In this document: positions 49,487 to 51,588 of the stretch, piece by piece
How the letters are laid out: each line of letters starts with the position of its first letter
Numbering within the stretch: the stretch's first letter is position 1
Source: Dactylellina haptotyla
Lineage: Eukaryota; Ascomycota; Orbiliomycetes; Orbiliales; Orbiliaceae
DNA length: 64,000 nucleotides
Direction of reading: 5' to 3'
NCBI GenBank assembly: GCA_031310005.1
Contig: CM062380.1
Location: 2,046,001-2,110,000, forward strand
Made by a program: the position numbers and the translations under genes
The notes under the pieces: model-generated
What the model saw: only the letters and a program-made list of their open reading frames with translations
What the model was told of the DNA's origin: nothing
The model's database searches: none

Positions 49487-51588
49487 CTACAACTTGGATT
49501 CAAGGGCAGACTTGAGGCGTCTCTCAACGGCGTCAAAGTACTGCGCGGTGTTGACCCAGGCGCTTCTGTCGGACTTTCCTTGAGCGAGGGCGAGATCTTT
49601 GGTCATAATTCCATCCTTATCGACAGCATCGATACAGGCCTTCTCGAGAGCCTCGGCGAAGGCAACAACTTCAGGCGTATCGTCGAGCTTACCACGCTGA
49701 ATCAACCCACGGGTCCATGCAAACTATATTACCATTAGCTATCATTCCTCATGAAAACTAATGAATAAATTAAACTTACGATGGAGGCGATCGGGTTTGT
49801 AGACGTCTCTTTTCCTTTCTGGTGTTCACGGTAGTGTCTGGTGACTGTTCCGTGGGCGGCCTCAGATTCGAACGTCTTGCCATCAGGAGTGATAAGAACA
49901 GAGGTCATGAGACCGAGGGAACCGTAGCCCTGAGCGACAATGTCGGACTGGACGTCACCGTCGTCTATTATTCTGTCAGTAAGAACCTACAAGATTGATA
50001 TTACGACTCTCTTACACTAAAAGTATAAACGTTAGCATTTTTGTTTATAGAGTAGGAAGGGTTGATTCCTCGACTTACGTTCTTCAATGCCATAACGAAA
50101 CCGCCGGTAGACTTGACCATTTGGGCAACCATGTCATCGATCTAACAACTCGGTTCAGCAATGAATTCTAACATAGTACATCGTGGATTCTTTTCTGTAC
50201 CAATCTGTGCTCATACCAGAGCCCCTTGGCCTCAAATTGAGACTTGTAGTCCTTCTCATAGATCTCCTGGAAGATATCCTTGAATCGACCGTCGTATTTC
50301 TTCAAGATGGTGTTCTTGGTGGACATGTAGAGGGGATATCCGCGGTCGAGAGCGAGCTTGAAAGAAGCGTGCGCGAATCCTTGGATGGACTCGTCGGTAT
50401 TGTACATGGACATAGCAACACCACCGCCGTTCTAGGGATTAAAAGTTAACTTTGAGACCATTCTCGATCATATTTCTTTCCGTTAAATCTATGGATTCAC
50501 CTTGTAATCAAAAACGTGGATCTTCTCAGCCGGGCCTCCGTTCTTTGGGGTGAAAACCATCTCGAGAGTTCCCTCTTCCTTGGCGACGTAGTCCTTGGCT
50601 TTATACTGATCACCGTGGGCATGACGGCCGATGATGATTGGCTTCTGCCATCCTGGTACGAGTCTAGGGATGGCTGGGATGACAATTGGCTCTCTGAAGA
50701 CCGTGCCTCCGAGGATGTTTCTGATGGTCCCGTTGGGTGACAGCCACATCTGCTTGAGGTTGAATTCCTCCACACGAGCTTCATCTGGAGTGATGGTGGC
50801 GCATTTGACACCAACGGAGTACTTCTTGATGGCCTCAGCAGCATCGATAGTGACCTGGTCATTAGTCTGGTCACGGTATTCGATTCCCTGCGAGCTTGTT
50901 AGCATTGATGTATTTGTAAAAATTACTGTGATGGGGATGCTGTACCAGATCGTAGTACTTGAGGTCGATGTCGAGGTATCTACAGAACTAGTTTAGATAA
51001 ATCGGCCACTAGGCTAGGGAGCTAGTAGCTAAAGCTTACGGGTTGATGAGCTATCAAGACAGCAAATTGTGAGTTGATCGGCTCGTACATTTCTAAATGG
51101 CAGCAGGTAGATGATTACATACCCTATCCTTGATCATCTGCCAGATAATTCTAGTTTGTTCCTACAAAATTTCAATGAGATGAGGTTTCGTCTTCGAGTG
51201 GTCTGAATTTGATTTCTTACATCTCCGTCGAGCTCCACAACGGGATTCTTGACTTTGATCTTGCGACTAGAACCTAATTTATATCAAATAGAGTGTTGGT
51301 ACCTCGCTGATATCGCTTGTTTCCATCCAGGGTGCGCGACGAACAATGATAACAAGAGACTGCGCAAGCCCAAAACATAAGGGGAAAATTCAGGAAGTAC
51401 GTACTTTCGGATGACATCTTTCGTACTAAAGCAAAGGAGCTCAGAGCGACTGGGTTTCTGGCGGTTGCGGCGAAGCTTGGGGCGAAGAGCGATCTGGAGG
51501 GAGTCGAGAGAACCGCGGAGCGAACGGGCGTTTGGATGAACTTTTGGCAGCAGCGCCACGAAAGAGCAGATGTCGTTGAAGAGAGCAT
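49487..51588 (-). CDS. idpA: NADP-dependent isocitrate dehydrogenase, eleven exons including a 1-nt exon
   Basis: Converts isocitrate to 2-oxoglutarate and makes NADPH. Exons on the minus strand: 51405..51588, 51221..51273, 51123..51161, 51040..51050, 50946..50979, 50501..50887, 50201..50431, 50079..50141, 50016 alone, 49780..49964, 49487..49723 (474 residues). Junctions rebuild [68 protein letters not shown] and KNYDGDVQSD; the last needs base 50016 as a single-nucleotide exon supplying the T of the Tyr codon. Catalytic regions seen: [35 protein letters not shown] with the metal-binding Asp residues, [11 protein letters not shown]. The N-terminus is a mitochondrial presequence; an internal Met58 (MSSESSSRK) precedes the cytosolic-type start; the C-terminus ends SKL. 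Aspergillus IdpA is known to reach mitochondria, cytosol and peroxisomes from alternative starts. Confidence 0.95.
50016..50016 (-). other. Candidate single-nucleotide exon of idpA
   Basis: On the minus strand, intron 50078-50017 (62 bases: GTAAGT, GCTAAC, TTTTAG) ends one base before intron 50015-49965 (51 bases: GTAAGA, TACTGAC, AATAATAG). The single T between them plus AC of the next exon codes the Tyr of KNYDGDVQ. See findings. Confidence 0.75.

What the first reader, a model, noticed from the sequence alone, without database searches (positions are those of the whole stretch)
49965..50078. Candidate single-nucleotide exon in idpA
Between exon 8 (ending ...MALKN) and exon 10 (starting with AC GAC GGT) two complete introns lie back to back with one base between them. 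The first has GTAAGT, GCTAAC and TTTTAG (62 bases); the second has GTAAGA, TACTGAC and AATAATAG (51 bases). Splicing both leaves a single T (plus-strand base 50016) that makes the Tyr codon of KNYDGDVQSD, a motif nearly invariant in NADP-IDH and containing metal ligands. Using only the first intron leads to a stop within ten codons. Using the first donor with an internal TTGTAG gives a frame-keeping alternative that replaces Tyr with seven residues (VLTDRII). The single-base exon is thus the reading that best fits the protein. One-base exons are known as rarities in plants; sequential removal (upstream intron first) would avoid the size problem of exon definition.
Basis: partly seen in the sequence, partly recalled or inferred. 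Interest (0 to 1): 0.9.

Follow-up and report, generated by a model that had tools for sequence, protein, structure and literature searches.

The report
One-base exon in a fungal gene
A single DNA letter between two tiny introns very probably forms a complete exon of a key enzyme gene in a fungus of the nematode-trapping family; such exons are very rare, and gene models of three relatives look wrong at this very spot, each in a different way.

Summary
Confirmed. On the minus strand two complete introns (50078-50017, 62 nt; 50015-49965, 51 nt) flank one base, T50016, in an NADP-isocitrate dehydrogenase gene of a fungus close to Dactylellina haptotyla (Orbiliaceae). Of 95 one-intron and 553 two-intron GT/GC-AG solutions tried, only this one restores KNYDGDVQSD. 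KNYDGDV is invariant, without insertion, in 117 of 117 aligned homologues outside Orbiliaceae.

Relatives support it. Three of the four Orbiliaceae protein clusters found break at this joint, each differently: P0001 (D. haptotyla) keeps VLTDRII, P0003 (Orbilia brochopaga) keeps SRKGRFTNPAICT, and P0121 ends ALKN-CKK...MLL, which reads as T+GTAAG: intron 1 removed, intron 2 read through. The tails can encode a TACTRAC branch box. The P0001 model argues against a sequencing error. The fourth cluster, P0002, has the normal Tyr; its gene structure is unknown.

Many other fungi have a single intron here, 2-3 nt upstream (A|AC TAC), so the pair looks derived.

No transcript was available. One-base exons are known in plants (APC11, VPS55) and Fusarium CYP621A (2026): a new member of a known, very rare kind. 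Confidence 0.9.

The parts
50016..50016 (-). Candidate one-nucleotide exon (exon 9), base T on the minus strand; first base of the Tyr codon of KNYDGDVQSD
50017..50078 (-). Intron 1 of the pair (62 nt): GTAAGT ... CTAAC (50035-50031) ... TTTTAG, phase 0
49965..50015 (-). Intron 2 of the pair (51 nt): GTAAGA ... TACTGAC (49981-49975) ... AATAG, phase 1
50079..50141 (-). Exon 8 (63 nt), ends ...MALKN
49780..49964 (-). Exon 10 (185 nt), starts AC GAC GGT (completes Tyr, then DGDVQSD)
49987..49992 (-). TTGTAG inside intron 2: acceptor of the rival VLTDRIID form, whose exon would start at 49986
   Evidence: used in the public D. haptotyla model P0001
49487..51588 (-). Whole coding span of the NADP-isocitrate dehydrogenase gene, 11 exons and 10 introns in this reading, 474 aa

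Best explanation
T50016 is a constitutive one-nucleotide exon of the NADP-isocitrate dehydrogenase gene. Two ordinary U2-type introns of 62 and 51 nt are recognised by intron definition and removed one after the other, leaving AAC-T-ACGAC and so the Tyr of KNYDGDVQSD. Shown: complete signals for both introns; the only solution among those tried; an invariant residue; relatives' models that break at the same joint with intron-like tails. Inferred: that the mRNA contains the T; that removal is sequential; that the arrangement is shared by at least three Orbiliaceae lineages and replaced a single intron lying 2-3 nt upstream.
For: Only with the T do the exons give a full-length 474-aa protein with the motif; 1 of 553 two-intron and 0 of 95 one-intron solutions restore it. 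KNYDGDV without insertion in 117 of 117 homologues outside Orbiliaceae; also in PDB chains 2qfv (yeast-type Idp), 1lwd and 5h3f. P0001 (D. haptotyla), differing from the window's protein at 5 of 474 positions, carries exactly the VLTDRIID reading, so its DNA lacks the base at the same place. P0121 ends ALKN-CKKRTAKLPATMILTMLL: C K fits T|GTAAG (0.1% of random frames start C K) and the tail can encode TACTRAC. P0003's insert can also encode TACTRAC (1.7-2.9% of random frames). Rarity of a one-base gap. Genome searches found no second close copy of the gene.
Against: No transcript or cDNA. The relatives' DNA could not be read, so conservation is inferred from protein letters; the P0001 tail is identical to the window's and adds no independent branch-box evidence. 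P0002, the fourth Orbiliaceae cluster (19 members), shows the normal Tyr and may have one ordinary intron. 24 single-intron choices are in frame and stop-free, among them VLTDRIID, which a public annotation uses.
Confidence: 0.9

Rival explanations
1. One intron from donor 50078 to the TTGTAG acceptor ending at 49987 (92 nt) is removed; the protein carries VLTDRIID in place of Tyr.
For: In frame and stop-free; it is the public model of D. haptotyla (P0001).
Against: No insertion at this place in 117 of 117 homologues outside Orbiliaceae. O. brochopaga has unrelated letters there and P0121 a different ending. The nearest good branch box lies 46 nt from that acceptor, a weak GTAAT 15 nt away, and the first acceptor after the good box, TTTTAG, would have to be skipped. 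The segment spells the TACTGAC box of intron 2.
Confidence: 0.05
2. One intron from donor 50074 (GTCGAG) to 49965 (110 nt) is removed, giving KN-VN-DGD.
For: In frame, stop-free, only one net extra residue.
Against: Poor donor four bases beyond a near-perfect GTAAGT; loses the invariant Tyr; profile score 858.6 against 868.2 bits for the T form.
Confidence: 0.02
3. A base was lost in sequencing or by mutation before ACGACGG, and the real structure is one long intron (or the gene is broken).
For: A 113-114 nt single intron is not impossible; intron 1 of the gene is 131 nt.
Against: The P0001 model reads ...IIDDGD, and the P0003 model ...ICTDDGD, i.e. G|AC GAC with no extra base, in other species' records. 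It leaves the complete second set of splice signals, with the right base between, unexplained. The rest of the gene is intact.
Confidence: 0.02
4. Both the T form and the VLTDRIID form are made, the second as a minor or regulated product.
For: Both are open frames; plant one-base exons have retention isoforms (VPS55, PMC8831610 passages).
Against: No sign of conservation of the inserted letters among relatives. Not tested with RNA.
Confidence: 0.15

Closest known systems
Single-nucleotide exon of CYP621A in Fusarium (Nelson and Syed 2026, PMC12940212; parts 1 and 2 of 3 of the text read)
   Same: One base between two short fungal introns inside a conserved motif; needed for frame; most public models wrong at the joint; RNA reads confirm it there.
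   Different: Other gene and lineage; the base is a G, the middle of a Gly codon, here a T, the first base of a Tyr codon; CYP621A genes are said to be rarely expressed.
APC11 single-nucleotide exon of Arabidopsis (Guo and Liu 2015, PMC4674806; parts 1 and 2 of 3 read)
   Same: Constitutive, frame-restoring one-base exon; authors favour intron definition with sequential removal.
   Different: Plant; the base lies 333 nt into a 422-nt intronic stretch; proven by cDNA and base-substitution reporters, which are lacking here.
APC11 and VPS55 1-nt microexons of land plants (PMC8831610; passages)
   Same: Conserved one-base exons missing from reference annotations.
   Different: Plants; confirmed by RNA-seq and RT-PCR; isoforms without the exon known.
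Stwintrons of filamentous ascomycetes (PMC12403724, PMC9024468: listing abstracts; PMC6616335: passages)
   Same: Two short fungal introns at one place that need consecutive splicing.
   Different: There one intron splits a splice signal of the other, which fixes the order and leaves no base; here no core signal is split and one base stays in the mRNA.
Placozoan mitochondrial cox1 single base pair exon (PMC5436844; listing only)
   Same: An exon of one base.
   Different: Mitochondrial gene, not a nuclear gene with spliceosomal introns.

Membership tests
Single-nucleotide exon | One base flanked on both sides by complete introns | tested here: met
Single-nucleotide exon | The base restores the frame and a conserved residue, and no other solution tried does | tested here: met
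Single-nucleotide exon | Arrangement present in relatives | tested here: inconclusive
   Three of four Orbiliaceae protein models break at the joint as expected; the fourth, P0002, is normal; no DNA of relatives was readable
Single-nucleotide exon | Mature mRNA contains the base | not testable with these tools
   no RNA reads or cDNA
Single-nucleotide exon | Changing the base changes the cDNA accordingly | not testable with these tools
   bench reporter needed, as done for APC11
Stwintron | Internal intron interrupts donor, branch box or acceptor of an external intron | tested here: not met
   both introns have their own intact signals; T lies outside both
Introner-like or repeated intron | Similar copies elsewhere in the genome | tested here: not met
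   only the locus itself matched at E<=10; the tool warns that no match does not prove rarity
Tandem-duplicated intron pair | The two introns resemble each other | tested here: not met
   core local score 6.0, reached by 88% of 2000 shuffles
Eukaryotic NADP-isocitrate dehydrogenase (TIGR00127) | Profile match above the curated cut-off | tested here: met
   orthologues P0001 754.8, P0002 772.1, P0003 741.0, P0121 507.0 bits, cut-off 397.15; the window's own protein was not scanned but is 97% identical to P0001

The most novel reading that the evidence does not exclude
The one-base exon is the trace of a short-range intron relocation. The intron that many other fungi have in the Asn codon (A|AC TAC) was replaced in Orbiliaceae by two abutting introns 2 and 3 nt further on, the one-base frame gap being bridged by a recruited one-base exon that has been kept in a central enzyme across several lineages. 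Such a double intron would be a real intermediate for one-nucleotide intron shifts.
Probability: 0.4. Interest if true: 0.75.

Novelty: new member of a known kind. Interest (0 to 1): 0.62.

Why it matters
It would be a second fungal gene with a one-base exon, next to Fusarium CYP621A, and in a central-metabolism enzyme that should be expressed well enough to test easily. Three relatives broken in three ways in public models would show how annotation fails on such exons. The contrast with the single intron 2-3 nt upstream in many other fungi gives a tractable case of very short-range intron relocation, a debated process. It also poses a clean question of how spliceosomes handle a 3' and a 5' splice site one base apart.

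Tried and rejected
Tandem duplication of one intron: no similarity between the two cores. Introner or repeated intron: no other copy found (with the tool's own caveat). Stwintron: no signal is interrupted. Lost base in the assembly: argued against by the P0001 and P0003 models. VLTDRIID as a conserved segment: P0003 and P0121 have other letters there.

Led nowhere: PMC5587772 on single-nucleotide intron shifts is not held and is known to me only from a reference-list passage. The search 'microexon, fungi, 1-nt' held no paper; 'Orbiliaceae, intron, splicing' listed two papers, neither opened. PMC12409088 passages only repeat APC11. The listings show no title about a one-base exon in an isocitrate dehydrogenase gene; the library holds open-licence papers only. 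No structure prediction was run.

Limits: each protein search scored 8000 candidates and listed the best 120, so counts over 120, 159 or 279 proteins are counts over capped lists. One search left out P0001, P0002 and P0003 before counting, leaving 117; P0121 was not among its 120. Species names of P0002 and P0121 are cut in the listing ('[Orbili'); my notebook calls P0002 Orbilia oligospora, which is a guess.

Full report
Where it is. The window is G000:C2:2046001-2110000 of a 39.8-Mb genome in 11 contigs. The gene, minus strand 51588-49487, encodes an NADP-dependent isocitrate dehydrogenase. Its best public relative is H072_1316 of Dactylellina haptotyla (P0001, 97% identity); with the disputed joint set equal the two proteins differ at 5 of 474 positions. 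So the organism is very probably an Orbiliaceae fungus close to Dactylellina. Searching its genome with P0002 gave six matches, five being exons of this locus and the sixth a weak 28% match on contig C1. The last exon alone matched once. No second close copy was found; these searches score only the best candidates.

Anatomy. Eleven exons and ten introns join to 474 aa plus stop; exons 3, 4 and 5 have only 39, 11 and 34 nt. The joint is AAC|GTAAGT...CTAAC...TTTTAG|T|GTAAGA...TACTGAC...AATAG|ACGACGG. The branch A lies 16 and 12 nt before the intron ends. Of the eight other introns of the gene, five have a branch-like box with its A at 12-15 nt (two of them strict CTRAY), one has only TTGAT at 11 nt, and two have none by the pattern used. 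The two introns in question thus carry better boxes than most of their neighbours.

Is the T needed? With it the protein reads KNYDGDVQSD. Skipping it, keeping intron 2, keeping intron 1 or keeping both breaks the frame or stops. Of 95 single GT/GC-AG introns of 25 nt or more tried around the joint, 24 are in frame and stop-free and none restores the motif. Of 553 two-intron choices, 114 are in frame and stop-free and one restores it: the T exon. KNYDGDVQSD is exact in 115 of the 120 best homologues. Of the other five, P0001 and P0003 have the inserts below, and three (P0040, P0070, P0102) vary only after KNYDGDV. All 117 aligned homologues outside Orbiliaceae have KNYDGDV with no insertion, and a profile built from them scores the T form 868.2, the VN form 858.6 and the VLTDRIID form 851.7 bits. 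PDB chains 2qfv, 1lwd and 5h3f share the motif. That Asp residues of this block bind the metal is recalled, not tested.

Is it chance? A strict scan finds this as the only pair of introns 0-30 nt apart in the window, both strands. First-order Markov sequences gave a one-base pair in 1 of 60 (GTRNG) and 0 of 60 (GTAAG), although pairs at any gap of 0-30 averaged 0.8 with GTRNG. Twenty 10-kb stretches at even steps along contig C1 gave no pair at gaps 0-3 and four at gaps 0-30 with GTRNG. The criteria were chosen after seeing the locus, and the scan is insensitive: it misses the pair around the 11-nt exon of the same gene. These numbers describe rarity and are no formal P value.

Relatives. Four protein clusters of Orbiliaceae were found (two names are cut in the listing). 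These four, and no other of the proteins held (159 with that block), carry DEQTR in the first conserved block. P0002 (19 members) has the normal motif. The other three break exactly here. P0001 reads [13 protein letters not shown] and P0003 (Orbilia brochopaga) KN-SRKGRFTNPAICT-DDGD. P0121 ends ALKN-CKKRTAKLPATMILTMLL. The last is what one gets if intron 1 is removed and intron 2 read through: C K is T+GT AAG, and the read-through to the stop would be 56 nt by my arithmetic, a normal intron size here. 0.1% of random frames start C K. The tails can encode TACTRAC with its A 12-18 nt from the end, against 1.7-2.9% of random frames of equal length. P0001's tail equals the window's own letters, so only P0003 and P0121 are independent in this. 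My reading is that all three carry the same pair with the same T, and that annotation programs which do not place a one-base exon chose three different patches. This is inferred from protein letters; their DNA could not be read. P0001 and P0003 both show G|AC GAC with no extra base, which argues against a base lost in sequencing.

Other fungi. Proteins and reading frames of other fungi, many from metagenome contigs, show where their intron lies. Among the 159 proteins of the first two searches, 140 have NYD after the K of this block, 15 run from K into S (AAG A|GT), 3 are the Orbiliaceae models and 1 lacks the block. Of 120 C-terminal frames, 66 enter with ...DY-DGD (G|AC TAC), 30 have NY and 24 start inside or after the motif. 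So many other fungi have an intron after the first base of the Asn codon. The window has none there; its introns lie 2 and 3 nt further on. Nelson and Syed propose, for CYP621A, a lost base rescued by a cryptic one-base exon. That fits here, but independent gain of two introns is not excluded.

Mechanism. Filamentous ascomycetes pair splice sites across introns (PMC6616335, passages). Both introns here are complete, so either may leave first with the same product. Simultaneous assembly on sites one base apart is unlikely; Guo and Liu argue likewise for APC11. This part is inference.

What is known. One-base exons are reported for APC11 (PMC4674806, parts 1-2 of 3 read), APC11 and VPS55 across land plants (PMC8831610, passages) and Fusarium CYP621A (PMC12940212, parts 1-2 of 3 read), which names itself the first fungal case. 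The listings show no further fungal nuclear case by title (open-licence library only). The kind is known; this is a new member, in another gene and another class of fungi.

Verdict. What is missing is RNA across the joint.

Noticed in passing
51040-51050 (-): An 11-nt microexon (exon 4) in the same gene, between 39-nt and 34-nt exons.
   Followed up: partly
51588-49487 (-): Two in-frame Met codons (474- and 417-aa forms) and a C-terminal SKL suggest mitochondrial, cytosolic and peroxisomal forms from one gene, as reviewed for A. nidulans idpA (PMC3798809, passages).
   Followed up: partly
protein block DGDEQTRIIW, exons 2-3: DEQTR in place of DEMTR in the four Orbiliaceae clusters and in no other of the 159 held proteins with the block.
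   Followed up: no
P0001, P0003, P0121 (public protein models): Three public Orbiliaceae models of this enzyme appear wrong at the same joint.
   Followed up: yes
L007 (G000:C1:7217070-7217558): Weak 28% match to isocitrate dehydrogenase elsewhere in the genome, perhaps another member of the wider dehydrogenase family.
   Followed up: no
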